NCBI RefSeq assembly: GCF_010091925.1 | Contig: NZ_WVID01000015.1 | Span: 1-64,000 of the forward strand | Reading direction: 5' to 3' | Length of the DNA stretch: 64,000 nt | From: Nostoc sp. B(2019) | Lineage (GTDB): Bacteria > Cyanobacteriota > Cyanobacteriia > Cyanobacteriales > Nostocaceae | Shown here: piece after piece, positions 49,774 through 64,000 of the stretch | Numbering within the stretch: position 1 is the stretch's first letter | Layout of the letters: each line of letters opens with the position of its first letter | Notes under the pieces: generated by a model | Database searches by the model: none | What the model was told of the DNA's origin: nothing | The model's input: only the letters and a program-made list of their open reading frames with translations | Made by a program: the position numbers and the translations under genes

Positions 49774-50353
49774 GAGCAATAAAACTTATAGCCTGGGGTA
49801 GTTGTGGGCAGAATGAAACACAATTTGTCGGAGTTTCAAAGTAATTCGCTCCTTTCCTTTGCTGTTTAGACTCGGATGCAGTTCAAACAGCGAACATTGA
49901 CGTTCCGCTAACAGAAACGTTCCTGATTTCATCCCTCTATAGTAGGTTTCATCAATAACTCAAGTTAGAAAGCACAAGTACAAGAAACTATACTAATCGA
50001 TACATTTATTTAAATATAGTAGAAAAATAAATATTTTTTTATAGAACTTATGTTTTGGTGCTTTAAGATGTGATGCATCGCGTTTTGAAGCGTTAGGGTG
50101 CTTACTAACGATAATCTAAAATGATTTTTAATTTTGATTTTTATACCGAAGGATAAAACTATAAAAAAGTTACTAAGCTGGAAAGGGTTATCACTAATGA
50201 AAGTGTAATATTTTTACTAATATTTTCAGGAATCAGCGACGGTGATCCATGCTATTGATAGTTGTCCATCAAAGCTTACACCGTCGCGATCGCAATCAGT
50301 AGAGAAGCCATTCACTACATCTGTTTAAAGGCTGTGTTGCTCCCATTTTTGGT
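49774..50353. other. Intergenic region between GH65 fusion and beta-helix gene
   Basis: About 580 bp without a gene. It holds a 9-bp perfect inverted repeat (GCGACGGTG at 50236-50244, CACCGTCGC at 50279-50287) about 70 bp past the beta-helix gene stop; no clear T tract follows, so terminator function is uncertain. The rest is AT-rich and should hold the GH65 gene promoter. Confidence 0.5.
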
Positions 50354-51856
50354 TTAGAAGGTTTTTGCTGCTAATGGCGAACGAGCTTCAAGAGCACCTA
50401 TATCTATCCTCGCATCGCCGTTACCATTGCCATCCTGTGGACGAGTAGCGCCCCTTTGGTCAATCTTTGGTGCTTGCACGCCATTAAAGGCGTTAGTGCC
50501 AGCATCAATCGCCATGCTACCGAGTTTCAGAGAGAAATTTCTATAGCCAATATCTACAAATAGTGGGTTTTGTCCAATGATATTGTGAGGCTCTGAACTG
50601 GTAAATTTGGATGAATTATAAATCAAGTTGTAATCAAACTTGACATTGTTATTAGCTTGATTAACATGGTTGACTATTCCGTTTTTCTTGGCATACATAA
50701 TGTTGTTAAATACTCTAACATTCTCAGTCATAACTACTGCAATTTCGCCCAAATATTGAGTAGTAGAATTATGAGAGTTCTGATAGGTCGTGTTGTTAAT
50801 CACATCTACATTGGGACTTTTAAATACTTGAATTCCAGCAGCCCCATTGTTGTAAACAATGTTATTTGCAATTAATGTCTTTCCCCGATATGCTTGGCGA
50901 GTTGAGTTTTTTTGAGTATTTAGAGCATCATCAATCATGATGCCATTAGACTCAGCGATCGTTCCTGAAACTTTCCAAGGAATTAAGCTTCGATTGTCAT
51001 ATACAGTATTCCCCCGAATAATCATTTTATAGTCGGTGGTATTATCGTCATAATTCCAGTTGTGAAGTGTGGTAATTGTGTTTGCTCCCGTCGAACTATA
51101 CAAGCAATTTTTAAAGATAAGATTGTTCTCAATAGTCACGTAGTCAGTTCTGAACGCACCAATTGCTCCAGCACCAAATTTAGAGATCTTGTTGTTGCGA
51201 ATCACTATATGGTGAGAATGTGTTTTGATTGCCCCTCCTAAGAAGGATGGATGGAGCGCAATTCCAGCGCCGTTTGTTAGCGGATTGTGTATGTTGTCTT
51301 TTTGCTGTTGGGCATAGACCAAAGTCACATTGTCGTTATTCCCAACTAGCTCAAGACCTTCAATAACAATGTAAGAGGAGCCAACAACGTTAATGGCGTA
51401 AGGATTTTGTGATTTAATGACGGGGCGGTGTCCATGATAAGCCTTGAAAGTAATTGGAGCAGTTGGTGTGCCATGTTTGTCATAAATCACGAGGATCTCT
51501 TTGGAAGTATCTGCCCTTGTGTAAGTGCCATTCATGACGTAGACCTTATCGCCTGGTGTTGTCACCTGATTTGCTGCTCTTTGCAGCGTCCGAAATGGAG
51601 TAGTATGTCTTAGTCCGTCATTTTTATCGTCTCCATTCTCAGAGACGTAGTATGCCTTACCAGAAGTACTCAAAGATAATCTATCAGAGCCGTTGGAAGT
51701 AGGTGTACCTTTGCCCCAGTTAAAATTCACTGTGGTATCTGTGCGTGTCAACTTCGGTTCGTTCAAGTCTGCGTTCACAAAGGGTGCAGCTTTTACCCCC
51801 ATGTCAATTCCTGGGCTGACAACTAGGGTTATCGCCAGAGCTTGAGAAAGAAACAT
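50354..51856 (-). CDS. Secreted right-handed parallel beta-helix protein
   Basis: A 500-residue protein with an N-terminal hydrophobic signal-like segment (LSQALAITLVVSPGIDMG), then a DUF1565-like opening (KAYYVSENGDDKNDGLRHTTPFRTLQRAANQVTTPGDKVYVMNGTY) and many NN-rich beta-helix coils (IVIEGLELVGNN, HHIVIRNNKISKFGAGAIGAF, VTIENNLIFKN, ANNIVYNNGAAGIQVFKSPNVDVINNTTYQN). It ends in DQRGATRPQDGNGNGDARIDIGALEA, the choice-of-anchor-Q type terminus. It probably binds or cleaves an extracellular polysaccharide; no catalytic set is certain. Confidence 0.88.
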   Translation of the reverse strand: MFLSQALAITLVVSPGIDMGVKAAPFVNADLNEPKLTRTDTTVNFNWGKGTPTSNGSDRLSLSTSGKAYYVSENGDDKNDGLRHTTPFRTLQRAANQVTTPGDKVYVMNGTYTRADTSKEILVIYDKHGTPTAPITFKAYHGHRPVIKSQNPYAINVVGSSYIVIEGLELVGNNDNVTLVYAQQQKDNIHNPLTNGAGIALHPSFLGGAIKTHSHHIVIRNNKISKFGAGAIGAFRTDYVTIENNLIFKNCLYSSTGANTITTLHNWNYDDNTTDYKMIIRGNTVYDNRSLIPWKVSGTIAESNGIMIDDALNTQKNSTRQAYRGKTLIANNIVYNNGAAGIQVFKSPNVDVINNTTYQNSHNSTTQYLGEIAVVMTENVRVFNNIMYAKKNGIVNHVNQANNNVKFDYNLIYNSSKFTSSEPHNIIGQNPLFVDIGYRNFSLKLGSMAIDAGTNAFNGVQAPKIDQRGATRPQDGNGNGDARIDIGALEARSPLAAKTF

Positions 51857-52776: not shown

Positions 52777-54273
52777 ATGAGAGCTATTCAACGTCTTATT
52801 TCAATTGCAGTTATTTCAATTTCAATTGTCTTCTTAACTTGTGTTTCTGGAAGTTTAGCATTCGTTCCAACTGAAACAGACTTTCAGAGGCAGTTGCAGC
52901 CAAAACCAGAAATAATCACTGCGGAGATTCCCCATAATCCCAATCAAGCTAAACAAGAAGCATCCTATCCAAACACACCGCGAGTAGTTTTTCTTGACCA
53001 CTTTGCTTGGCAAGTCTTCGCTGCTTTAAATTGGCCAGCTGACTGTCAGCAAGGTTCTCCCTTAGCAAGCAAGAAAATAGGCGAAGCTCCAGATGCTCCC
53101 CGTGTCTGGGAATTCTACCGCACTCCTGAGACAGTATTTCTTTCAGGACAAACGCCCAGCACTCCAAACAAACCCTTTATCTGTCTGAATGCTGAGAATA
53201 GATTGCTTCCACCAAAGAACTCAACTGTAAAACTTACAGAACAGGGTAGGCTAGACGCCAAAGGTCAGAATGCAAATCCTCAAGATCTACCTCTGGTTGA
53301 TCAGCGAGGCAACTATATTATTGTTGAAACCTACATTAACCCACAAGAGTTCAATCAAATTGTTAAAAACAAGTGGTATGACGGCGTTAATTTAGCACAA
53401 TTCAATAATGATAATAATCAGTTTGACCTTGTATGTAGCGGCAGTAAAAATGACAACATACTTGGAGTTCCATGTAGTACATACCAGAAGGAAGGCGCGA
53501 TTGAAATTAAGGCTAGTTGGCGAGTTTTTGATGACCAGACATCTGAGGACGAAAAAGCTCGTTACTACACCACCAAGCGCAAGGTATTGATTCCGGGACA
53601 GTCAGACAAATGTGACACTGGTAAAGCATTTTGTAGCGACACTGGTGAGGAATTTAGTCAAGTAATAGAAGTGGGTTTAATTGGCTTCCATATTAAGCAT
53701 AAAACTAGTGAGCAGGGATGGATATGGTCTACATTCGAGCAAATAGATAACGTTCCAGATGGAACTTTGAAACGGAATCAGTACACGCTCAATAACCCAG
53801 ACTGTCAAGAAAACTGCGTGGAAAATACTTCCTATGTAGAGCCACCATATCTTTGGCGGAAAGAAGCTCCCCACGCAGTCACAAAAATTAAGGGCGAAAT
53901 TAAAAATCAGATTCCGTCACAGATAGTTCGCTCATTCAAGCCAAAGCCACCGCTCGATTCTCAAATATCGGAGCAAAATCAACAATGGCATCAAGCACTA
54001 AAAGATATTTCTAAATCATCGGTCTGGCAATACTACAACCTTATTGGTACTCAATGGCTAACGAACCCCAGTCAACTTTACAACGAACAACTTAGAGAGA
54101 TTACACCGAAGTTGCCGCTAGCCAACGTCACCCTAGAACCCTATATCCAAAATAGTAATTGTATTGGATGTCATACTGGCGCAAAACTCCGAACTCGTAT
54201 GCAACCTTATGCAGACTTTACCTTTCAAATGGCGAGAGCCAATTCCAACAATAGTACGACAAAAGCTCAGTAA
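52777..54273 (+). CDS. Exported protein with single C-terminal c-type haem motif
   Basis: A 498-residue protein with a Sec signal (RAIQRLISIAVISISIVFLTCVSGSLAF). A long region of unrecognised fold follows, with HFAWQVFAALNWPADC (about 72-87) and RVWEFYRTPETVFLSG (about 109-124), and several Cys residues spread through the middle that could form disulphides. Near the end is one haem c attachment motif, NCIGCHTGAKLRTRM (Cys462, Cys465, His466). It is therefore probably a periplasmic or luminal cytochrome-like redox protein. The next gene starts 87 bp later on the same strand. Function is unknown. Confidence 0.8.
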   Translation: MRAIQRLISIAVISISIVFLTCVSGSLAFVPTETDFQRQLQPKPEIITAEIPHNPNQAKQEASYPNTPRVVFLDHFAWQVFAALNWPADCQQGSPLASKKIGEAPDAPRVWEFYRTPETVFLSGQTPSTPNKPFICLNAENRLLPPKNSTVKLTEQGRLDAKGQNANPQDLPLVDQRGNYIIVETYINPQEFNQIVKNKWYDGVNLAQFNNDNNQFDLVCSGSKNDNILGVPCSTYQKEGAIEIKASWRVFDDQTSEDEKARYYTTKRKVLIPGQSDKCDTGKAFCSDTGEEFSQVIEVGLIGFHIKHKTSEQGWIWSTFEQIDNVPDGTLKRNQYTLNNPDCQENCVENTSYVEPPYLWRKEAPHAVTKIKGEIKNQIPSQIVRSFKPKPPLDSQISEQNQQWHQALKDISKSSVWQYYNLIGTQWLTNPSQLYNEQLREITPKLPLANVTLEPYIQNSNCIGCHTGAKLRTRMQPYADFTFQMARANSNNSTTKAQ

Positions 54274-54360
54274 ATAGTATTACTCTCAACTAGCCTTTTC
54301 GTAACTAGCTAATTGATTATTCTGTGATCCAAATCAAACTAATTTCAGGAGTTTTTTACA

Positions 54361-54972
54361 ATGGCGATCCAACTTGAAACACCATTTCCTAAAGAATTAC
54401 GTACTCCAGAAAACTCAGCAAAAATCAGAATCATTATTAAGCAATGGACTCAACTCATAGCCTGGACTTGGACTAACTTTCTGGCATTTGAGCAAGATGA
54501 AACAAATAAGGCAGAAGAGAAACTGCTTAAAGAATACTTCAGTTCTATCCTCAAAAAGCAAGCCCTGTTTCGTCTGGCAGCAATTGAGTATGGCGATCCA
54601 CAATCAGCTCAATCTGCGGAAGAAACAAGCAAAATCATCAAAGAAGTTATAACCGCAAGTAAGACTGCACCAGGGATTAGCTTGACTTTGGCTGATGTGT
54701 ACAAGCAACTTACTACGAATGATTATATTTTTACTGATCCTCTTGTACAAGATTTTCGCTTTGAGGTAACAGTCGATTCTTTTACTGGCAACATCTCCTA
54801 TGAGTATGATGAAGAAAGAAAGGAGAAATATGTTGCTATTATTGCCTATCCACCGCGTCCCGCATTGAGTGAATTTACTGTCACAGAAGACCAATTGAAA
54901 GATTGGATGCAAGACAATCTTAGTGGTAATTATCTTCCTCCTTCTGTATATATTCCTGTTTCTGGGTCATAA
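54361..54972 (+). CDS. Unrecognised 203-residue protein of the TOMM locus
   Basis: A 203-residue soluble protein I do not recognise. The first 125 residues look helical with many Lys/Glu (LIAWTWTNFLAFEQDETNKAEEKLLKEYFSSILKKQALFRLAAIEYGDP), the rest beta-rich, ending in a Pro/Ser-containing tail (GNYLPPSVYIPVSGS). It contains no Cys, so it is a poor thiazoline substrate, although its Ser/Thr residues could be modified. AGGAG precedes ATG 54361. It is paired with the haem protein upstream and followed by a terminator-like hairpin before the cyclodehydratase. Confidence 0.7.
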   Translation: MAIQLETPFPKELRTPENSAKIRIIIKQWTQLIAWTWTNFLAFEQDETNKAEEKLLKEYFSSILKKQALFRLAAIEYGDPQSAQSAEETSKIIKEVITASKTAPGISLTLADVYKQLTTNDYIFTDPLVQDFRFEVTVDSFTGNISYEYDEERKEKYVAIIAYPPRPALSEFTVTEDQLKDWMQDNLSGNYLPPSVYIPVSGS

Positions 54973-55001
54973 GCTTTAAAAATTTAATTGATGACAAAAA
55001 T

Positions 55002-55050
55002 AGAGGTAGAAATAGGAGAAAAATTCTTTCTACTCTACCTCTTTTCTTGT
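55002..55050 (+). terminator. Terminator-like hairpin before the YcaO gene
   Basis: AGAGGTAGA (55002-55010) pairs with TCTACCTCT (55034-55042), preceded by an A run and followed by TTTCTTGTAT. It lies 30-70 bases past the 203-residue gene and suggests that the two upstream genes end transcription here, leaving the cyclodehydratase partly or wholly separately transcribed. Confidence 0.6.
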
Positions 55051-55098
55051 ATATAAATCTTGCGTTGGCATTCGGCGATCGCATAACCCTAGGCAAAT

Positions 55099-57345
55099 AT
55101 GTTTAGAAAACCGAAGTTTAAGTCTCGCTTTCGTGTTGAAACGGTTGAAGAAGGTGTATTTATTTTGTCTGAAAGAGGTGCGATAATACTTCGCGATCGC
55201 CTCTATCAGTTGTTGGTTCCTTTACTTGATGGAAATCTGACCACTGATGAAATTGCTGAGAAACTTCAAGATAAGCTACCAGCACCCTACGTTTATTATG
55301 CTCTCATGGAGTTAAAGCAAAAAGGCTATCTCATAGAGAATGAAGAGGTTTTACCTGCACATCTAGCCTTATTTTGCGAGCATTTGAACGTCAATCTTGA
55401 AAACGCCCGCCATCGGTTGCAAGCAACTAAAGTTGCCGTCAAGGCTTTAGGGACACCGTTTGCATTAGAATTTATTGCCATCCTCGAATCGCTACAAATT
55501 CAAGTCGCTGAAGAAGCAGACTTAGAAGTTGTCTTGACCGACGACTACTTGCGAACAGAACTAGTGGAGATTAATCAAAAAAACTTGGAGCGATCGCGCC
55601 CTTGGATGTTAGTCAAACCGACGGGAACTATAATCTGGATTGGCCCGGTCTTTCATCCTCACAAAACGGGTTGCTGGGAATGTCTATCCCAACGCTTGCA
55701 AGGTAATCGTCCAGTTGAAGGGTTTATCCAGAGACGCAAGAATGACGCATCATCTTTAACGCCACCATTGGCTAACTTACCCTCAACGCTGCAAACTGCT
55801 CTCTCAATGGTAGCGACTGAAATCCTCAAATGGATTGTCCAGGGAGAAAATAAGCGCCTCGAAGGAGTGCTTGTAACCCATGACACCCTGGCACTGGAGA
55901 CGCAGAACCATACACTGATTAGACGCCCTCAGTGTCCCATCTGTGGCATCATTAAACAAGAGCATCGTCAGCCTCTACCTGTGGTATTTGGCAGTCGAAA
56001 GAAAACTTTTACTGCTGATGGTGGACATCGCTGCTTAGAACCGGAAGCAACCTTTGAGAAATATCAACAGCACATTAGTCCCATCACCGGAATTGTCCGA
56101 GAGTTTGGGAAACTTTCCCGCAACTTGAACGGTTTAACGCCTACCTACTTTGCTAAGCATCATTTTGCCTCGATGTTTGATGATTTAAGTGTGTTAGAGC
56201 AAAACATCGGTGGTAGAAGTGCAGGCAAAGGAAGAACAGACGCCCAAGCAAGAGCCAGCGGTTTCTGCGAAGCCATCGAAAGGTACTCTGGCGTTTTTCA
56301 GGGAGACGAAATTAGAGTCAAAAGCAGTTACCAAAAACTGGGCGACAAGGCTATCCATCCTAATAACTGCATGAACTTTAGCCAAACTCAATATGATAAC
56401 CGAGAAAAATGGAATGCCTATTGCGCCAGTTTCTTTCAGAAAGTTCCCGAACCTTTTAACGAAGAAAGAGAAATTGAGTGGACGCCTGTTTGGTCTGTGA
56501 CTCACCAATGTTTCAAGTACTTGCCTACTGCTTATTGTTATTTTGGCTATCCCATGTCTTCTGAGCCAGACTGTTGGGCAGATACCAACGGTTGTGCAGC
56601 AGGCAATACCTTGGAAGAAGCTACTGTTCAGGGTTTTATGGAATTGGTAGAGCGAGATAGTGTCGCCTTGTGGTGGTATAATCGCATTCCCCGACCGGGG
56701 GTAGATTTAGAAAGTTTTGACGAGCCGTATTTTCAAGATCTGAAAAGTTATTACCAATCTATCCATCGTGAACTTTGGGTTCTTGATATTACTAGCGACT
56801 TGAATATTCCTACTTTTACTGCAATTAGTCGCAGGAGCAATCGCCCCGCAGAAGACATAATTTTAGGCTTTGGTACTCACTTCGATCCAAAGCTTGCAGT
56901 TCAAAGAGCTCTCACAGAAATGAATCAAATTCTTCCTGCTGTTTTAGCTTCTCATGCCGATGGCACAACTCAATATGCTGCCTCGGCTGAACCACCTGTT
57001 TTAGATTGGTGGAAAACGGCAACACTAGAAAATCAGCCTTACCTAGCACCTGATAATATTGCCCCCAAAGTGCATTCTAACTATCCTCAGATTGAGCATA
57101 ACGACCTGCTAGATGATATCAAGCTTTGCCAGCAAATTATTGAGCAACGTGGCATGGAAATGCTCATCCTCAACCAAACTCGTCCAGATATTGGATTGAA
57201 AGTTGTCAAAGTTATCGTTCCAGGAATGCGCCATTTCTGGAAGCGTTTAGGAGGGGGTCGGCTTTATGAGGTTCCGGTACAACTGGGTTGGCTGGAAGAA
57301 CCGACTTTGGAGGAGGAGCTGAATCCGTTTCCGATGTGGATGTAA
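55099..57345 (+). CDS. Fused TOMM cyclodehydratase (RRE + E1-like + YcaO)
   Basis: A 748-residue protein with the layout of fused azoline-forming cyclodehydratases (TruD/PatD type). Residues about 1-85 are a winged-helix leader-peptide-binding domain (RRE); about 100-330 an E1/ThiF-like domain with a zinc tetracysteine (CWEC at about 192, CPIC at about 280); about 365-735 the YcaO ATPase (GGRSAGKGRTDAQARASGFCEAIERYSG, NGCAAGNTLEEATVQGFMELVERD, GFGTHFDPKLAVQRALTEMNQ). It ends NPFPMWM, resembling the Pro-rich C terminus needed for activity. It should turn Cys/Ser/Thr of a precursor peptide into thiazolines or oxazolines. No precursor, dehydrogenase or export gene is recognised in the window. 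Confidence 0.92.
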   Translation: MFRKPKFKSRFRVETVEEGVFILSERGAIILRDRLYQLLVPLLDGNLTTDEIAEKLQDKLPAPYVYYALMELKQKGYLIENEEVLPAHLALFCEHLNVNLENARHRLQATKVAVKALGTPFALEFIAILESLQIQVAEEADLEVVLTDDYLRTELVEINQKNLERSRPWMLVKPTGTIIWIGPVFHPHKTGCWECLSQRLQGNRPVEGFIQRRKNDASSLTPPLANLPSTLQTALSMVATEILKWIVQGENKRLEGVLVTHDTLALETQNHTLIRRPQCPICGIIKQEHRQPLPVVFGSRKKTFTADGGHRCLEPEATFEKYQQHISPITGIVREFGKLSRNLNGLTPTYFAKHHFASMFDDLSVLEQNIGGRSAGKGRTDAQARASGFCEAIERYSGVFQGDEIRVKSSYQKLGDKAIHPNNCMNFSQTQYDNREKWNAYCASFFQKVPEPFNEEREIEWTPVWSVTHQCFKYLPTAYCYFGYPMSSEPDCWADTNGCAAGNTLEEATVQGFMELVERDSVALWWYNRIPRPGVDLESFDEPYFQDLKSYYQSIHRELWVLDITSDLNIPTFTAISRRSNRPAEDIILGFGTHFDPKLAVQRALTEMNQILPAVLASHADGTTQYAASAEPPVLDWWKTATLENQPYLAPDNIAPKVHSNYPQIEHNDLLDDIKLCQQIIEQRGMEMLILNQTRPDIGLKVVKVIVPGMRHFWKRLGGGRLYEVPVQLGWLEEPTLEEELNPFPMWM

Positions 57346-57645
57346 AGCGCTCTTTAGTATCTCAATACTTTTTTGTTTGGGAAAAGGTTAAGGGGTAAAG
57401 GGGAAACAGTAAATTCAAACTTTCCTTTTAACTCAAAGGTATTGCCTACTAGTTCATCGCATTAAATTTAACAAGTGAACTCATTCTTAATTTCTCTTCT
57501 TCTCTGTGTCCACCGAAGTTCAGATCGGCGGAAGCCGCCGCTCCGACTTCTCTCTGCGTCTCTGCGGTTCGTTCCTTGACCCCTCAAAATTAATGAGACA
57601 GACCACTAGTATCTGCTCTAAAACTTGTTTTGACTATAAATAAAT
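57346..57645. other. Intergenic region with dispersed repeats
   Basis: 300 bp without a gene. 57377-57444 is a copy of the AAAGGGGAAAC ... CAAAGGTATTG repeat found also at 32331-32384 and 46686-46735. 57510-57575 is GC-rich (CACCGAAGTTCAGATCGGCG, then CTCTGCGTCTCTGCGG) and related to the repeats at 2200-2370 and 25945-26041. This separation weakens the case for one operon with the amidohydrolase. Confidence 0.6.
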
Positions 57646-58728
57646 ATGCTTAAAGGATATCGAATTATTGATGCAGATTCCCACGTTTACGAGCCATACC
57701 AAATGTGGGAAGAGTATTTGGAACCTGCATTTAAAAGCTTTGCTCCATCTTCAGATTTCACGATTAAAGGTGAGGAAATTCTCAACAAATATTCTGATCT
57801 GCTCCGCCTTGAAGGAGCTAAACAAGTTACTCAAGCTTATCCCCTATCTTGGCTTAATAGCTTTGACTCAGAATCTCATGTATTAGCAATGAAGCAGATG
57901 GGGGTGGACATTTCGTTTGTCTATCCGACGTACTTTTCATGGATGATTGCTGTAGACAGCATGGCTCCTCAACTGGCTGGTGCGTTTGTCCGCGCCTATA
58001 ACAATTGGCTGCGAGACTTTTGCAGCTATGACCCGCAAATCCTTAGAGGCGTGGGAGTTGTGAATTTACATGCACCAGAAGAAATGGTGTCGGAGTTGCA
58101 GCGGGTGGCAGATTTTGGCTGGAAGGCGGTGTTTTTGCGCCCTAACCTTGTCAAAGGGCGATCGCTAAGTAGTCCCGCCTATGAGGCATTTTGGACAAAG
58201 TGCGAGGAATTAGGCATTGCAGTTAGCCTGCACGAAGGAACTCACTCTCGCCTACCTACTGCTGGTGCTGATCGCTTTAACACCCGCTTTGCTCTACACG
58301 CCTGCTCCCACCCATTAGAGCAGATGATGGGACTGCTTTCTCTCATCGAAGGGGGAGTTCTGGAACGCCATCCTCACCTCAAAGTCGGATTTATGGAGTC
58401 TGGCTGTGGCTGGCTTCCTTACTGGCTATGGCGACTCGATCGCGAGTACGAAGACTTGCAATGGGAAATTGGGGACATCGTAAAAATGAAGCCTTCAGAG
58501 TATTTCCGCCGCCAGTGCTTTATTGCGATCGAACCTTCAGAGCCTTATCTGAATGAGATTCTTGAGTATCTGGGTTCAGATAATTTAATTTTTGGTTCCG
58601 ATTACCCTCACATGGATCACAAGACAGATGTTGTCGCACAGATGGTAGATCTCCAAGAGAAACTCCCCGAAAAAACTGTACAGAAAATTCTTTGGGATAA
58701 CCCTGCTCGTTTCTATAGTTTGGAGTAA
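57646..58728 (+). CDS. Amidohydrolase family 2 (ACMSD-like) metal enzyme
   Basis: A 360-residue TIM-barrel protein of the ACMSD/gamma-resorcylate decarboxylase branch. The first-strand metal motif is IDADSHVYEPYQMWEEYL (about 7-24, a D-x-S-H variant of DxHxH), followed by GWKAVFLRPNLV, VSLHEGTH (His about 197), HACSHPLEQMMGLL and the C-terminal LIFGSDYPHMDH (metal Asp about 323). Members decarboxylate or hydrolyse aromatic or other carboxylic acids. It lies 300 bp after the TOMM cyclodehydratase on the same strand, so a role in tailoring is conceivable but unproven. Confidence 0.88.
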   Translation: MLKGYRIIDADSHVYEPYQMWEEYLEPAFKSFAPSSDFTIKGEEILNKYSDLLRLEGAKQVTQAYPLSWLNSFDSESHVLAMKQMGVDISFVYPTYFSWMIAVDSMAPQLAGAFVRAYNNWLRDFCSYDPQILRGVGVVNLHAPEEMVSELQRVADFGWKAVFLRPNLVKGRSLSSPAYEAFWTKCEELGIAVSLHEGTHSRLPTAGADRFNTRFALHACSHPLEQMMGLLSLIEGGVLERHPHLKVGFMESGCGWLPYWLWRLDREYEDLQWEIGDIVKMKPSEYFRRQCFIAIEPSEPYLNEILEYLGSDNLIFGSDYPHMDHKTDVVAQMVDLQEKLPEKTVQKILWDNPARFYSLE

Positions 58729-58897: not shown

Positions 58898-61800
58898 ATG
58901 AGTGCGATACCTTCTCTACGAGACGCTGCGCGAACGGTGAGCTTCGCTAACGCAGATTACCAGATTGTCTCCAAGATTTATGAAAGTGCTAATTCATTAG
59001 TCTACCGAGCTGTGCTTAACTCCAATACCCAACCTGTCATCCTCAAGGTTCTTAAAGAAGATTACCCGATACCTTCAGAACTGACCCGATACAAACAAGA
59101 GTATGAAATTACCCGCTCTCTAAAAATTGATGGAGTAATCAAAGCTTACAACTTACTGCCCTATAAAAGCACCTTAGCAATGGTTTTGGAGGATTTCGGG
59201 GGCAAATCGTTGGACATTTTGATGAACTCTCAAAAGTTTACACTCTCAGAATTTCTCTGCATTGCCATTCAGATTTCTCAGACGCTAAGCGAGATTCATG
59301 CTGCTAGTGTAATTCACAAAGATATCACCCCTGCTAATATCGTTCTTAACTCAGAAACCAAGCAACTCAAGATTATTGACTTTGGCATCTCCACAGTATT
59401 TACACGAGAGAATCCAACAATTAAAAATCCCAACGTCTTAGAAGGAACATTAGCTTATCTGTCGCCAGAACAAACCGGCAGAATGAACCGAGCACTCGAT
59501 TACAGTACTGACTTTTATTCTCTTGGTGCAACTTTTTACAAGCTACTCACGCAAAAGCTGCCTTTTGAAACCAACGACCCTTTGGAGTTAGTCCACTGTC
59601 ACATCGCCAAACAACCTATTCCTCCCCACGAAGCCAATCCAGAAATTCCCCGAACCGTCTCCAATATCATCATGAAGTTGTTAGCAAAAACGTCTGAGGA
59701 GCGGTATCAGAGCGCATTGGGGATAAAAGCAGATTTAGAAGCATGTCTGACACAGTTACAGCAGGGACAGATTTTAGAGTTTCCCCTGGCTCGTCATGAT
59801 ATTTCTGACCGATTTCAAATTCCGCAAAAACTCTACGGTCGAGAAGCAGAAATAGAAACTCTACTCTCAACATTTCAGCGGATTGCCGAACGCGACCTTC
59901 AAGATAAACAACAAGAAAATGCAGCAAGTCATAAGCGAATTGAAATGACGCTAGTTGGTGGTTATTCTGGCATTGGTAAATCTGTGCTGGTACAGGAACT
60001 CTACAAACCGATAACACAGCAACGCGGCTACTTTATCTCTGGCAAATTTGACCAATTTCAGCGCAATATCCCTTATTCTGCCGTTGTCTTGGCGTTTCAA
60101 TCCTTGGTGCGCCAAGTGCTAGCTGAAAGCGAAGCTCAACTGGCTCAGTGGCGCGAAAAACTCCTGGCGGCTGTCGGTGTGAATGGACAAGTAATTATTG
60201 ACGTTATTCCTGAAGTAGAACTAATTATCGGTTCTCAGCAGCCGGTGCAACCACTGGAACCAACTGAGGCACAAAATCGCTTCAATGCAGTCTTCCAGAA
60301 TTTTATCCGGGTTTTTTGTCAGCGATCGCACCCTCTAGTTATTTTCCTAGATGACTTGCAATGGGCTGACTCTGGCAGCCTCAAGCTACTTGAGGTAATG
60401 ATGACTGACGATAACATGGAATATTTATTACTGCTTGGGGCTTATCGTGATAATGAAGTTGGCCCCAATCATCCCGCATCGCTAGCCCTTGCTCGCTTGA
60501 GGCAGCAAGGAGGGATTATTAATTGCATCAATCTTGACCCCTTAAACTTGGAGGAAATCACCCAGATGATTGCAGACACCCTCCACAGCAATCAAGAAAC
60601 AGTCAAATCATTATCGCAATTAGTTTTTCAGAAGACTTCAGGAAATCCCTTTTTTATTAATGAATTTCTCAAAACTATTTATCAAGAAAATCTCTTAACT
60701 TTTGACCGAGAGCAAAAATGCTGGCAATGGAATATTACTCACATTGAGTCTCTCAACATCACAGAAAACGTAGTGGACTTGATGCTCGGCAAGCTCAGAA
60801 AACTTTCAGATACAACTCAAAAAGCGCTACGCTTAGCTGCTTGTATTGGTAATAGTTTTGACCTTAGTACATTGGCAATTATTGACGAAAAATCTGCACC
60901 TGAAACTTTTAAAAATCTTTTGCCAGCTATTCAGTTAGGGTTGATTCAGCCTCTATCGGAGCTAGAAACAACTTCAAACACACCAATTGAATCTGCATTG
61001 ATTATTCAAAATTACAAGTTTCGTCATGACCGAGTACAACAGGCTGCTTATGAACTAATTGATGAAGACCAAAAAAAAGCAGTTCACTTACAAATTGGCA
61101 GGCTATTGCTTGCTAACATCTGTAAAAATGAACGTGAAGAAAAAGTTTTTACTTTGGTCGGTCATCTGAATAAAGGACGAGAGTTAATCGAAAGTGTGGC
61201 TGAAAAGAAAGAACTAGCAGAATTGAATTTATATGCTGGTAAAAAAGCCAAAGAAGCAACAGCTTATGCAGCATCCAGGGAATACTTGATTCTTGCAGAG
61301 AACGAGTTTCCAGGTGATATTTGGCAAGAGCGCTACGAGATGGCTCTTGACCTTTACAAAGAACTGGCAGAAGTCGAGTATCTGAATGGTAATTTTGAGC
61401 AGTCTCAGTCCTTGCTTGAAATGTCACTTAAGCAGGCGAAATCGGCTCTTGATGGCACAGACTTTTACTACTTACAAATTGTTCAATATACCCTGTTAGG
61501 ACGAATCAGCGAGGGAATTGAGTTGGGGCGAACTGCACTGAGGCTACTAGGAATCGACCTATCAGCAGAGAACTTACAAGCAGCTTTCGAGGCTGAGCTT
61601 GCAGAATATCGCCAAAATTTAGGTGAACGAGCGATCGCTTCTTTATACGACAATCCAGAAATGGAGATACCAGAAAAAAAGGCAGCTTTAAAAATACTGA
61701 CTCGGATTTTCCCCGCTGCTTGGATTTTAGATCCAGCTTTGAGAAATCTGGTTGCAACTAAACTAGCTAATCTTAATATCAAATACGGCCACATGGAAAA

Positions 61801-64000
61801 ATCTTCAATGGGCTATAGCTTTTTTGGCGTAGTCAATACCCATGTGTTGCGCGATTATTGTTCAGGTTATGAATATAGCTCTCTTGGGATGAAGCTAGCT
61901 GATAAATATCAGGATTGGTCTTGTAGGAATGCGGCTACCCAAATTCATGGCAGTTTCACCATGCACTGGTTGAAACACATTAAGCTGTCTGAGAAAGTTA
62001 ATACTGAAGGTGCTGATGCCGGATTGCAAGTTGGTGAGTTACAACTTGTGGGGTACACCTTTACTTACAACTTGTACAATCTGATTTGTCAAGGTAGAAG
62101 TTTAGACTCTCTTTTAAAGGAAGCGTCTCGCAGTTTGCTCTTTAGTGAAGAAACTCAAAATCAGTGGGCAATTAATTGTATATTGGGTGCTAAAATCCTC
62201 ATCCAAAATTTGCTAGGTCTTACCCAAGATAAACTATGTTTTGACATAGAACAGACAGAAGAGTCAGCTTTTTTAACAGCCTGTGAACGAGATGAAACGC
62301 TGGCAGCAATCTGCTTTTATTACATTTATAAAGCTCAGGTTCTTTATTTATATGGTGAGCCAATTGAGTTAATCTATTTGGAGAAAGCGGGAGAGTTGGT
62401 TGACTATATTCCCGGAACGATCGCGATCGCTGAGCATAATTTTTACTACTCGCTAACGCTAATTGCTCTCTATCCCCAAGCTTCATCAGATGAACAAGAT
62501 AAGTACTGGCTGCAACTGGAAACCAATCAACAGCGGATGAAAGAATGGGCAGATATCTGTCCAGAAAACTTTTTGCATAAATATCTTTTAGTCGCAGCAG
62601 AAATGCGAGACATTTCTGGTCAATGGTATGAAGCTGTAGATTTATATGACCAAGCCATTGAATCCGCTAAAGAACATGAATTTATCCAGAACGAAGCTTT
62701 GGCTAACGAACTAGCAGCAAAGTTTTGGATGAAACGCGGAAAAGAAGAATTTGCCCAACTCTATATGAGAAAAGCTTACCAAGGCTACCAAATATGGGGT
62801 GCAAAGCGTAAGGTAGAGGACTTAGATCAGAAATATCCGCAGTGGTTGGCTTCAACATTATTCGCCAGCAAAACAACTTTCAGCAGTACTTCAACAAATA
62901 CCAGCAGTTCCGGTGAAGCATTGGATTTAGCCACGGTGCTAAAAGCCTCGCAAACAATTTCTGGTGAAATCGTTCTGAGCAAGTTACTGCAAAATATGAT
63001 GAAAACTGTCATTGAGAATGCCGGTGCTGAAAAAGGTTTTCTGATTTTGGAAAAAGAGGGTCACTGGTTTATAGAAGCTGAAGGCGCAGTAAATTCTGAT
63101 GATGTTACTATCTTGCAATCAGTTCCGGTAGACTCTGTTGATGCTCAGCAAATCCCCCTTTTGTCAGCCGCTATCATCAACTATGTCGCCCATACTCAAG
63201 AAAATATAGTCTTAAATGACGCTGTAAATGAAGGACTATTTACTCGCGATTGCTACATTACCATCACTCAACCCAAATCAATTCTTTGTACTCCCCTAAT
63301 TCATCAAGGCAAACTGAGCGGCATTCTATATTTAGAAAATAATTTAACAACAGGCGCTTTTACTAGCGATCGCGTCGAAATCTTAAAAATCCTTTCTGCT
63401 CAAGCCGCCATCTCTATTGAAAATTCTCGCCTCTATGAACAGTTAGAGGGTTACAGCCGAACTCTAGAACAAAAAGTAGAGGTCAGAACCCAAGAATTAC
63501 AAGATAAAAATCAGGAGTTAGCTAGCATCCTACAAACGTTGAGAGCCACGCAAGCTCAGATTATCGCTCAAGAGAAATTAGCTTCTCTGGGAGCCTTAAC
63601 AGCGGGTATCGCCCATGAAATCAAAAATCCTTTAAACTTTGTTAACAACTTTGCCGAGCTTTCTGTTGAGTTAACCCAGGAACTATGCGAAGAGATGGAA
63701 AATCAAAAAGACCGTTTAGCTCCAGAAAGCAGAGAATATATTGAAGAGATTTTAAACGATCTCAAACAAAATGCTCAAAAAATCCATGAGCATGGTACAA
63801 GGTCTGACAACATTGTCAGTGGGATGCTGATGCACTCACGGGGGCAATCGGGCGATCGACAAATGACAAATATTAACGCCTTGCTAGCGGAAGCGACCGA
63901 GCTAGCTTATCACGGAATGCGTGCCAAAGATGCTGCTTTCAAGATAATTATAGAAACTGATTATGATAATGAGATTGGACAATTGAATGTTGTGCCTCAG
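58898..64000 (+). CDS. Giant Ser/Thr kinase-AAA ATPase-GAF-histidine kinase (partial)
   Basis: An open frame of 1701 codons runs off the window end. It starts at ATG 58898 with GGAGG 10 nt upstream. Residues about 20-285 are a Hanks kinase (IHKDITPANIV near 140; DFGIST; GTLAYLSPEQTGRMNR); about 320-620 an AAA-16-type ATPase (Walker A GGYSGIGKS at 354-362, Walker B VIFLDDLQWAD near 482); a long helical region follows; about 1355-1510 a GAF domain; then a coiled coil and HisKA with His near 1573 (GIAHEIKNPLNFVNNF). The HATPase lies beyond the edge. This is the HstK-type architecture of filamentous cyanobacteria. The first 20 codons contain repeat-like DNA. Confidence 0.95.
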   Translation, partial: MSAIPSLRDAARTVSFANADYQIVSKIYESANSLVYRAVLNSNTQPVILKVLKEDYPIPSELTRYKQEYEITRSLKIDGVIKAYNLLPYKSTLAMVLEDFGGKSLDILMNSQKFTLSEFLCIAIQISQTLSEIHAASVIHKDITPANIVLNSETKQLKIIDFGISTVFTRENPTIKNPNVLEGTLAYLSPEQTGRMNRALDYSTDFYSLGATFYKLLTQKLPFETNDPLELVHCHIAKQPIPPHEANPEIPRTVSNIIMKLLAKTSEERYQSALGIKADLEACLTQLQQGQILEFPLARHDISDRFQIPQKLYGREAEIETLLSTFQRIAERDLQDKQQENAASHKRIEMTLVGGYSGIGKSVLVQELYKPITQQRGYFISGKFDQFQRNIPYSAVVLAFQSLVRQVLAESEAQLAQWREKLLAAVGVNGQVIIDVIPEVELIIGSQQPVQPLEPTEAQNRFNAVFQNFIRVFCQRSHPLVIFLDDLQWADSGSLKLLEVMMTDDNMEYLLLLGAYRDNEVGPNHPASLALARLRQQGGIINCINLDPLNLEEITQMIADTLHSNQETVKSLSQLVFQKTSGNPFFINEFLKTIYQENLLTFDREQKCWQWNITHIESLNITENVVDLMLGKLRKLSDTTQKALRLAACIGNSFDLSTLAIIDEKSAPETFKNLLPAIQLGLIQPLSELETTSNTPIESALIIQNYKFRHDRVQQAAYELIDEDQKKAVHLQIGRLLLANICKNEREEKVFTLVGHLNKGRELIESVAEKKELAELNLYAGKKAKEATAYAASREYLILAENEFPGDIWQERYEMALDLYKELAEVEYLNGNFEQSQSLLEMSLKQAKSALDGTDFYYLQIVQYTLLGRISEGIELGRTALRLLGIDLSAENLQAAFEAELAEYRQNLGERAIASLYDNPEMEIPEKKAALKILTRIFPAAWILDPALRNLVATKLANLNIKYGHMEKSSMGYSFFGVVNTHVLRDYCSGYEYSSLGMKLADKYQDWSCRNAATQIHGSFTMHWLKHIKLSEKVNTEGADAGLQVGELQLVGYTFTYNLYNLICQGRSLDSLLKEASRSLLFSEETQNQWAINCILGAKILIQNLLGLTQDKLCFDIEQTEESAFLTACERDETLAAICFYYIYKAQVLYLYGEPIELIYLEKAGELVDYIPGTIAIAEHNFYYSLTLIALYPQASSDEQDKYWLQLETNQQRMKEWADICPENFLHKYLLVAAEMRDISGQWYEAVDLYDQAIESAKEHEFIQNEALANELAAKFWMKRGKEEFAQLYMRKAYQGYQIWGAKRKVEDLDQKYPQWLASTLFASKTTFSSTSTNTSSSGEALDLATVLKASQTISGEIVLSKLLQNMMKTVIENAGAEKGFLILEKEGHWFIEAEGAVNSDDVTILQSVPVDSVDAQQIPLLSAAIINYVAHTQENIVLNDAVNEGLFTRDCYITITQPKSILCTPLIHQGKLSGILYLENNLTTGAFTSDRVEILKILSAQAAISIENSRLYEQLEGYSRTLEQKVEVRTQELQDKNQELASILQTLRATQAQIIAQEKLASLGALTAGIAHEIKNPLNFVNNFAELSVELTQELCEEMENQKDRLAPESREYIEEILNDLKQNAQKIHEHGTRSDNIVSGMLMHSRGQSGDRQMTNINALLAEATELAYHGMRAKDAAFKIIIETDYDNEIGQLNVVPQ
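58912..58953 (+). repeat. Dispersed repeat within the start of the giant kinase gene
   Basis: CTTCTCTACGAGACGCTGCG, continuing CGAACGGTGAGCTTCGCTAACGCA, encodes SLRDAARTVSFANA between MSAIP and the conserved DYQIVSKIYESANSLVYRA. The MITE at 52045-52203 contains CTTCTCTACG (minus strand) next to the core ACGCTGCGCGAACG in the opposite orientation, so the segment looks like an intergenic repeat that sits in frame in a coding region. Confidence 0.6.

What the first reader, a model, noticed from the sequence alone, without database searches (positions are those of the whole stretch)
52777..58728. TOMM (azoline) cyclodehydratase locus without a recognisable precursor
A complete fused RRE/E1-like/YcaO cyclodehydratase (55099-57345) is plainly visible, with intact Cys pairs, YcaO motifs and a Pro-rich C terminus. 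Yet no precursor peptide, dehydrogenase, protease or exporter is seen nearby. Its neighbours, an exported single-haem protein, an unknown 203-residue protein and an ACMSD-like amidohydrolase, are not standard TOMM components. Either the precursor is unlinked or the substrate is a larger protein, which would be a new kind of TOMM-like system.
Basis: partly seen in the sequence, partly recalled or inferred. Interest (0 to 1): 0.75.

Follow-up and report, generated by a model that had tools for sequence, protein, structure and literature searches.

The report
Azoline enzyme with hidden oversized precursor
A cyanobacterial enzyme that should put heterocycles into peptides does have a likely substrate gene beside it, a 203-residue protein whose last few residues form a conserved target, and its supposed amidohydrolase neighbour looks like an oxygenase that could finish the job.

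Summary
The fused RRE/E1/YcaO cyclodehydratase (55099-57345) is intact and aligns end to end with TruD and LynD. The precursor is not missing: the "unknown 203-residue protein" (54361-54972) is a diverged, oversized relative of nitrile-hydratase-like leader peptides (NHLP). It has the helix motif [ST]Q-x2-A-x2-W and the V-x4-L docking motif that bind an NHLP-type YcaO in published work, then a 21-residue tail ending YIPVSGS. Relatives of about 116 to 397 residues with the same kind of tail sit beside orthologous YcaO genes in many cyanobacteria; 46 of 47 strong hits in relatives lie within 15 kb of a YcaO hit. The "ACMSD-like amidohydrolase" keeps the metal ligands of PtmU3/LynB7 dinuclear oxygenases; LynB7 turns a C-terminal thiazoline carboxylate into a thiazole. 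A giant Ser/Thr kinase-AAA-histidine kinase follows. The haem protein is a lineage-limited extra. Best reading: a widespread azoline RiPP-like system with unusually long precursors and a conserved tail. The substrate assignment is strong; the oxygenase chemistry, cleavage, export and role are inferred. In wider sampling the tail is not universal. New variant of a known kind.

The parts
52777..54273 (+). 498-aa probably exported protein with one CxxCH (single-haem type); accessory to the 203-aa sub-type, role unknown
   Evidence: no Pfam or NCBIfam family; 13 of 150 relatives have a match; stays with the 203-aa gene when the pair is 12.6 kb from YcaO in G093
54361..54972 (+). 203-aa NHLP-derived precursor / substrate protein
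   Evidence: profile links A1-A3 E 1.1e-19, A3-A2 E 4.4e-18, A1-A4 E 5e-12, A1-A2 directly only 1.4e-4; linkage to YcaO; dN/dS 0.06-0.18 against five relatives, 0.42 against the sixth, L081; AlphaFold2 pLDDT 83.6
54448..54471 (+). helix motif T30-Q31-x2-A34-x2-W37, at the spacing of the MprE7 residues S10/Q11/A14/W17 that contact the YcaO RRE
   Evidence: sequence; PMC12455567
54880..54906 (+). docking motif V174-x4-L179-x2-W182, counterpart of L(X)4L
   Evidence: invariant V174, L179, W182 in the ten sequences of A1; PMC12455567
54907..54969 (+). 21-residue tail ending YIPVSGS, presumed modified core
   Evidence: pLDDT under 50 for residues 199-203
55099..57345 (+). fused RRE / E1-like / YcaO cyclodehydratase
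57646..58728 (+). PF04909 protein, predicted amidohydrolase-related dinuclear oxygenase (ARO) with D11, H13, H196, E251, D319, H322, D324
58898..64000 (+). giant kinase (Pkinase - AAA_16 - GAF - HisKA), 1,828 aa in full, ends at 64384 outside the window; presumed regulator/sensor

Best explanation
The locus is an azoline-forming maturation system whose substrate is the adjacent 203-residue protein. Shown by comparison: that protein belongs to an NHLP-derived family that typically carries a helix motif [ST]Q-x2-A-x2-W, a V/L-x4-L/I docking motif and, after it, a tail ending in [Y/F][I/L]P-x-[S/T/C]. Inferred from published MprE7/MprC and PatE/LynD work: helix and docking motif bind the RRE domain of the YcaO enzyme and feed the disordered tail into the active site, where Ser/Thr (elsewhere Cys) near the C terminus become azolines. 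Inferred with less certainty: the PF04909 enzyme is a dinuclear O2-dependent oxygenase that acts on the azoline, most simply by the LynB7 reaction (oxidation, loss of the terminal carboxylate, aromatisation), so that no flavin dehydrogenase is needed here (about 0.35 for exactly that reaction). The giant kinase and its response regulators probably control expression or sense the product. Cleavage and export are unknown; the product may stay attached to the protein.
For: Homology chain from the 203-aa protein to NHLPs; tail at 49 of 711 ORF C-termini against 1.5 expected, 47 of the 49 being precursor-family proteins; helix motif in 35 of 51 tail-bearing ORFs against 8 of 660 others; 46 of 47 strong precursor hits within 15 kb of a YcaO hit, 44 within 5 kb; YcaO and precursor both decayed in G018; 6 of 7 class-level genomes fetched later also have a tail precursor; purifying selection; YcaO like TruD/LynD; ARO within 5 kb of YcaO in 33 of 36 cases; LynB7 metal ligands conserved in 31 of 31 homologues; one 40-row YcaO clade (SH-aLRT 100) holds the tail loci apart from L106/L107.
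Confidence: 0.8

Rival explanations
1. The PF04909 enzyme hydroxylates a residue of the tail (Tyr, Ile, Pro or an azoline) as PtmU3 and AibH2 hydroxylate their substrates, without decarboxylation.
For: PtmU3 and AibH2 are hydroxylases (PMC10401708 passages; PMC10127204 passages); the Y/F-I/L-P part is the most constant part of the tail, and some tails end in F, L or M; ARO and dehydrogenase coexist in 5 of 40 loci.
Against: No direct test; the cyanobacterial relative LynB7 acts on a thiazoline carboxylate.
Confidence: 0.3
2. The tail is modified but not cut off: the folded protein itself is the product and its C-terminal heterocycle is a protein-derived cofactor or signal read by the neighbouring kinase.
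For: Precursors up to 397 aa; conserved tail and purifying selection over the whole gene; well-predicted fold; no GG site; no protease or exporter recognised among the scanned neighbours; sensor kinase beside many loci.
Against: Known NHLP relatives are cleaved; an exporter with peptidase domain over the NHLM cut-off exists elsewhere in this genome (C11); lone precursors and tandem precursors with differing N-terminal parts suggest that the tail is what matters.
Confidence: 0.25
3. The YcaO enzyme makes a thioamide or macroamidine, and the PF04909 protein is a hydrolase gatekeeper as PurAH is in bottromycin biosynthesis.
For: YcaO enzymes have several activities (recalled); PF04909 also holds hydrolases and decarboxylases (PMC10811679 part 1).
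Against: The enzyme is a fused TruD/LynD-like cyclodehydratase and no TfuA-like partner was seen among the scanned neighbours; six dinuclear-oxygenase ligands conserved; LynB7 is only 14% identical to PurAH (PMC10127204 passages).
Confidence: 0.1
4. The 203-aa protein is an accessory (scaffold or immunity) protein and the real substrate is a small peptide elsewhere.
For: Several known TOMM precursors are unlinked (PMC2887384 passages); the 203-aa protein matches no curated precursor model.
Against: Docking motifs and tail; the genome-wide TIGR03793 search gave only two sub-threshold scraps, E 0.055 and 0.2; tandem copies with the same tail beside one YcaO, as precursors have (L089, L093, L094).
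Confidence: 0.08

Closest known systems
MprE/MprC, an NHLP precursor with a YcaO cyclodehydratase (PMC12455567, parts 1-2 of 3 read)
   Same: structured NHLP leader docking on a YcaO RRE by an alpha1 helix motif and L(X)4L; tail modified
   Different: 81-aa leaders and a flavin oxidase MprD there; here 203 aa (relatives to 397) with long insertions or extensions, a conserved tail, a PF04909 enzyme and a giant kinase
Nostatin A cluster of Nostoc (PMC11583998, abstract, outline and passages)
   Same: NHLP-type precursor plus cyclodehydratase in Nostoc
   Different: 30-residue core rich in Cys/Ser/Thr, oxidase, LanM-like enzyme and epimerase; no PF04909 enzyme or kinase named in the passages seen
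Cyanobactin heterocyclases TruD, LynD, MusD
   Same: same fused architecture; E 1e-210 or better by phmmer
   Different: cyanobactin precursors are short PatE-type peptides with PatA/PatG proteases (PMC4603692 passages); none recognised here
NHLP-Burk TOMM clusters with a large Ser/Thr kinase (PMC2887384 and PMC4603692, passages)
   Same: NHLP-related tandem precursors, cyclodehydratase, large Ser/Thr kinase; the window kinase matches TIGR03903 at E 4e-40 in its AAA part
   Different: below the TIGR03903 cut-off (137.6 vs 705.75 bits); histidine-kinase C terminus; PF04909 enzyme; tail of another kind
LynB7/BarH and PtmU3 dinuclear oxygenases (PMC10127204 passages; PMC10811679 part 1 of 3)
   Same: all metal ligands named for LynB7, shifted by at most one position; PtmU3 is the best solved relative
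   Different: LynB7 acts on an NRPS product; here the gene goes with YcaO and precursor genes; LynB7 sequence itself was not available for comparison

Membership tests
TOMM fused cyclodehydratase | TIGR03882 and TIGR03604 over curated cut-offs | tested here: met
   182.8 vs 36.9 and 270.8 vs 219.25 bits
TOMM fused cyclodehydratase | RRE-like N terminus, CxxC pairs and YcaO motifs alignable with solved TruD/LynD | tested here: met
TOMM fused cyclodehydratase | azoline formation on a precursor | not testable with these tools
   needs an assay
NHLP / proteusin precursor (203-aa protein) | TIGR03793 over its cut-off | tested here: not met
   no family at E <= 0.1 for the 203-aa protein; its ORF is not among the two hits of the genome-wide search at E <= 1. 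Hence called NHLP-derived, not a standard NHLP
NHLP / proteusin precursor (203-aa protein) | homology to NHLP / nitrile hydratase alpha leader | tested here: met
   through intermediates A1-A3-A2 and A2 to 8TB1 and nitrile hydratase alpha; direct A1-A2 only E 1.4e-4
NHLP / proteusin precursor (203-aa protein) | NHLP fold | tested here: inconclusive
   good model, no clear match to solved chains
NHLP / proteusin precursor (203-aa protein) | YcaO-binding helix motif and L(X)4L motif | tested here: met
   T30-Q31-x2-A34-x2-W37 and V174-x4-L179; the position matching Q7 of MprE7 is K27 here
NHLP / proteusin precursor (203-aa protein) | GG cleavage site and hypervariable Cys/Ser/Thr-rich core | tested here: not met
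   no GG and no Cys in the sequence; tail conserved
NHLP-Burk / two-chain TOMM with kinase | TIGR03795 precursor and TIGR03903 kinase over cut-offs | tested here: not met
   203-aa protein has no TIGR03795 hit; kinase 137.6 vs 705.75 bits
Cyanobactin | PatE-type precursor and PatA/PatG proteases in the cluster | tested here: not met
   none among the six window proteins scanned; the rest of the genome was not searched for them
PtmU3/LynB7-type dinuclear oxygenase | PF04909 membership with PtmU3 as close relative | tested here: met
   PF04909 115.3 vs 26.4 bits; PtmU3 best of 40 solved sequences
PtmU3/LynB7-type dinuclear oxygenase | three His and three carboxylate metal ligands | tested here: met
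   D11, H13, H196, E251, D319, H322, 31 of 31 homologues; in a second alignment of 45 rows H13 is lost in one; D324, the LynB7 D325 position, is His in four
PtmU3/LynB7-type dinuclear oxygenase | O2-dependent oxidation, thiazoline decarboxylation for the LynB7 branch | not testable with these tools
   no assay; no LynB7 sequence for a tree

The most novel reading that the evidence does not exclude
A widespread cyanobacterial system in which a folded 200-400-residue protein, not a small peptide, receives a conserved C-terminal azole made by a YcaO enzyme and a LynB7/PtmU3-type dinuclear oxygenase, and the modified protein end (or the short YIPLS-type piece released from it) is a conserved signal or cofactor tied to a giant sensor kinase rather than a diversified antibiotic.
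Probability: 0.25. Interest if true: 0.85.

Novelty: new variant of a known kind. Interest (0 to 1): 0.62.

Why it matters
If right, it gives substrates to a common group of cyanobacterial YcaO enzymes that look orphan (the partner PF04909 enzyme was found in 95 of 388 genomes sampled from the order). It extends NHLP-type precursors to nearly 400 residues, with long insertions between the two docking motifs, and it puts a PF04909 dinuclear oxygenase into azoline maturation, a role so far reported for an NRPS product (LynB7). A conserved tail argues for a physiological signal rather than an arms-race toxin, which can be tested. In the open-licence papers held here no description of this combination turned up: searches 'YcaO amidohydrolase RiPP cyanobacteria', 'cyclodehydratase, precursor peptide, nonheme diiron, PF04909' (none), 'proteusin amidohydrolase cyanobacteri' and 'cyclodehydratase, oxidative decarboxylation, C-terminal thiazole, RiPP'; the papers listed there were seen as listings only. 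Most subscription papers are not held.

Tried and rejected
Unlinked precursor: TIGR03793 over the whole genome gave only two sub-threshold scraps. A DNA pattern for a YIP-type ending before a stop gave 12 genome hits (control 13); of the five in-frame ones that I translated only the window's belongs to a long ORF.

Mutual exclusion of oxygenase and dehydrogenase: seen in the first 56 loci with YcaO (40 oxygenase only, 7 dehydrogenase only, 9 neither, 0 both) but broken by 5 of 40 later loci. Dropped as an argument that one replaces the other.

LynB7/BarH orthologues next to NRPS genes: none recognised in the loci fetched. The 36-37% relatives in L169 and L170 sit beside polyketide synthase genes, so no direct comparison with LynB7 was possible.

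Universal tail: not so. Of 56 YcaO loci, 40 hold a tail ORF; of 27 YcaO loci in the later 40, 15 have a precursor hit and 12 do not. L242 and L243, with a PF04909 enzyme 74-77% identical, have instead a 204-aa ORF ending LGGIFLIGS or LGGIFLFGS; L225 and L237 have tandem NHLP-like ORFs of 107-150 aa ending in forms such as LYGILRVC.

Fold: no clear match for the 203-aa model among 257 chains, so no fold claim. Plain Foldseek and the fold of the 498-aa family could not be queued. The 498-aa family matched no solved structure by sequence.

Rows dropped before counts: one search used 47 of 66 precursor rows (E under 1e-7; the other 19 had E 2.9e-5 to 0.009), 36 of 41 rows (three fragments and two rows under 40% identity left out) and 72 of the 118 YcaO rows by my count (weak YcaO-only rows and small pieces left out). 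One search used only precursor hits at E under 1e-12 not touching a contig end. In one search, 2 of the 51 pattern matches (L086 712 aa, L163 93 aa) are chance. The tail pattern was written after the first tails were seen; searches check it on loci fetched later, with a slightly widened pattern anywhere in the last 10 residues. Near-identical strains are included, L100 and L177 are one locus, and L241 is the contig of L035, so counts are not independent.
Full report
WHAT IS THERE. The window lies on contig C16 of a 7.43-Mb genome; the closest named relatives at this locus are Nostoc sp. MG11 and Komarekiella, so it is a filamentous cyanobacterium. The same strand continues with a 1,828-aa kinase (58898-64384), a 122-aa response regulator and a 726-aa protein that begins with a receiver-like sequence (64720-67293), the last two outside the window and read by eye only.

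THE CYCLODEHYDRATASE. TIGR03882 and TIGR03604 are over their curated cut-offs; the closest solved structures are MusD, TruD and LynD (E 1e-210 or better), with alignment from the N-terminal RRE to the C terminus. It is the only PF02624 match in this genome. In the relatives search 66 of 150 genomes have some match.

THE PRECURSOR IS THE 203-AA PROTEIN. Homologues lie beside YcaO genes. Reading the small and medium ORFs beside YcaO homologues showed a shared ending: NYLPPSVYIPVSGS here, YPPHPYIPLTAC in a 127-aa protein, YVSPPYPYIPLSTS in a 354-aa protein. Alignment of 37 of them shows one architecture: a variable N-terminal part, a helix with SQ-x-x-A-x-x-W, a beta region, YPPxP, (V/L)-x4-(L/I)-x-x-W, then the tail. 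Profile comparisons tie the groups together: 203-type to short type E 1.1e-19, short type to NHLP-like type E 4.4e-18, 203-type to 345-392-aa type E 5e-12; the direct step from 203-type to NHLP-like is weak, E 1.4e-4. Of ten proteins scanned, five hit the NHLP model TIGR03793 (E 1e-13 to 4e-7, all below its cut-off) and five do not; four of the five hitters are members of the NHLP-like group, the fifth (L090) is of the short type. The profile of the NHLP-like group hits the NMR structure 8TB1 of an NHLP (E 8.6e-12) and nitrile hydratase alpha chains; the short-type profile does not do so significantly (8TB1 at E 0.34), nor does the combined profile A6 (E 0.11). The 203-aa protein itself reaches no family model, lacks a GG site and has a conserved tail. 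I therefore call it NHLP-derived, not a standard NHLP/proteusin precursor.

DOCKING MOTIFS. In PMC12455567 (parts 1 and 2 of 3 read) residues Q7, S10, Q11, A14 and W17 of the MprE7 leader helix and its L(X)4L motif are needed for modification by the YcaO enzyme MprC, and Leu to Val is tolerated. The window protein has T30, Q31, A34 and W37 at the same spacing (K27 at the Q7 place) and V174-x4-L179, with the tail starting three residues later. The strict pattern [ST]Q-x2-A-x2-W is in 35 of 51 tail-bearing ORFs and in 8 of 660 other ORFs of at least 90 aa (2 of the 51 are chance matches).

THE TAIL IS NOT CHANCE, BUT NOT UNIVERSAL. Of 711 ORFs of at least 90 aa in the loci fetched by then, 49 end in the tail pattern against 1.5 expected from internal positions; 47 of the 49 are precursor-family proteins. 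The pattern was defined after the first tails were seen, so later loci matter. Of seven class-level genomes with the PF04909 enzyme and not in the first set, six have a tail precursor (in L166 the hit is split over two neighbouring ORFs) and the seventh is a 4.5-kb contig. In 40 order-level loci, 25 of 28 complete strong precursor hits carry a slightly widened pattern within the last 10 residues. Against this, 12 of the 27 loci among those 40 that hold a YcaO gene have no precursor hit; four of the 12 show NHLP-like ORFs with other tails (L225, L237, L242, L243), eight nothing recognisable. The last residue is Ser, Thr or Cys in 45 of 49 of the first set and 18 of 28 of the second; the others end in Phe, Leu, Met or Pro.

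THE 'AMIDOHYDROLASE'. Its best solved relative is PtmU3, a dinuclear monooxygenase (E 9e-37), ahead of ACMSD (E 4e-12 or weaker). The LynB7 paper (PMC10127204, passages) names D11, H13, H197, E252, D320, H323 and D325; the window protein has D11, H13, H196, E251, D319, H322 and D324, conserved in 31 of 31 homologues. In a further alignment of 45 rows H13 is lost in one and D324 is His in four; the rest are invariant. PMC10811679 (part 1 of 3) describes a three-His/three-carboxylate dinuclear site for this class. LynB7 converts a C-terminal thiazoline-4-carboxylate to a thiazole with Fe(II) and O2 and needs the free carboxylate. That suits a substrate whose azoline sits at the very C terminus, but 14 of 77 tails end in another residue, the window tail has Ser rather than Cys, and L092 and L096 have tail precursors without the enzyme in the stretch fetched. 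I give C-terminal decarboxylation about 0.35 and plain hydroxylation about 0.3. The gene is within 5 kb of YcaO in 33 of 36 cases; two of the other three have no YcaO on the contig (G036:C211, G089:C34) and one sits with precursor and kinase on a short contig (G050:C321).

OXYGENASE AND DEHYDROGENASE. In 56 loci with YcaO, 40 have the PF04909 enzyme, 7 a SagB-type dehydrogenase (TIGR03605 over cut-off for L106), 9 neither, none both. Wider sampling broke this: 5 of 40 further loci have both. On the YcaO tree (54 rows, quick search) a clade of 40 rows with SH-aLRT 100 holds the tail loci apart from L106/L107; PF04909 loci also occur outside it, for instance L100 as sister of the dehydrogenase locus L101.

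KINASE AND HAEM PROTEIN. The kinase has Pkinase, AAA_16, GAF and HisKA domains and resembles the TOMM kinase/cyclase model TIGR03903 in its AAA part (E 4e-40, far below cut-off). Haft 2010 (PMC2887384, passages) noted a large Ser/Thr kinase with NHLP-Burk precursors, so this link has a precedent. The haem protein matches in 13 of 150 relatives; it goes with the 203-aa sub-type in ten genomes counting this one, also when the pair is 12.6 kb from YcaO (G093), while G113 has the 203-aa sub-type without it and G002, G011 and G124 have a match away from such a locus. A 33% relative with CxxCH lies in another azoline locus, L226. Its function is open.

VERDICT. The finding as worded (no precursor) is wrong, but what replaces it is more interesting than a routine azoline cluster: a common cyanobacterial system with oversized, NHLP-derived substrates, a conserved C-terminal tail and a predicted dinuclear oxygenase. 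The substrate assignment rests on several lines that agree; the chemistry after azoline formation, cleavage, export and biological role are inference.

Noticed in passing
window 46831-49779 (-): One 982-aa ORF that looks like a glycoside hydrolase family 65 phosphorylase fused to a HAD-type beta-phosphoglucomutase (read by eye, not scanned).
   Followed up: no
window 50354-51856 (-): Probably exported right-handed beta-helix protein with a choice-of-anchor Q domain (PF13229, NF041518).
   Followed up: partly
G000 contig C11:230238-235929 (loci L121, L123): An exporter over the NHLM_micro_ABC1 cut-off lies about 3.5 kb from a 106-aa ORF with a sub-threshold NHLP match: probably a separate RiPP cluster of this genome.
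   Followed up: no
L036, L038, L086, L092, L096, L167, L168: A radical SAM protein (about 450-476 aa) accompanies the roughly 190-240-aa precursor types, in L092 and L096 without the PF04909 enzyme.
   Followed up: partly
L204, L206, L207, L209: Two PF04909 paralogues (351 and 360 aa) flank two or more precursors with tails such as DNLYIPVTF and NSYIPSCSS, with giant kinases beside them.
   Followed up: no
L087 7464-8816, L091 5808-8108: AAA_35 (PF14516) proteins lie just upstream of precursors; ORFs with similar C termini recur beside other loci.
   Followed up: no
L242, L243, upstream of YcaO: 204-aa ORFs that look like two NHLP-like units in one chain, ending LGGIFLIGS or LGGIFLFGS: a different precursor type in otherwise similar clusters.
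   Followed up: partly
L169 913-10535, L170 3632-9034: PF04909 relatives (36-37% identity by BLAST) directly beside polyketide synthase genes.
   Followed up: partly
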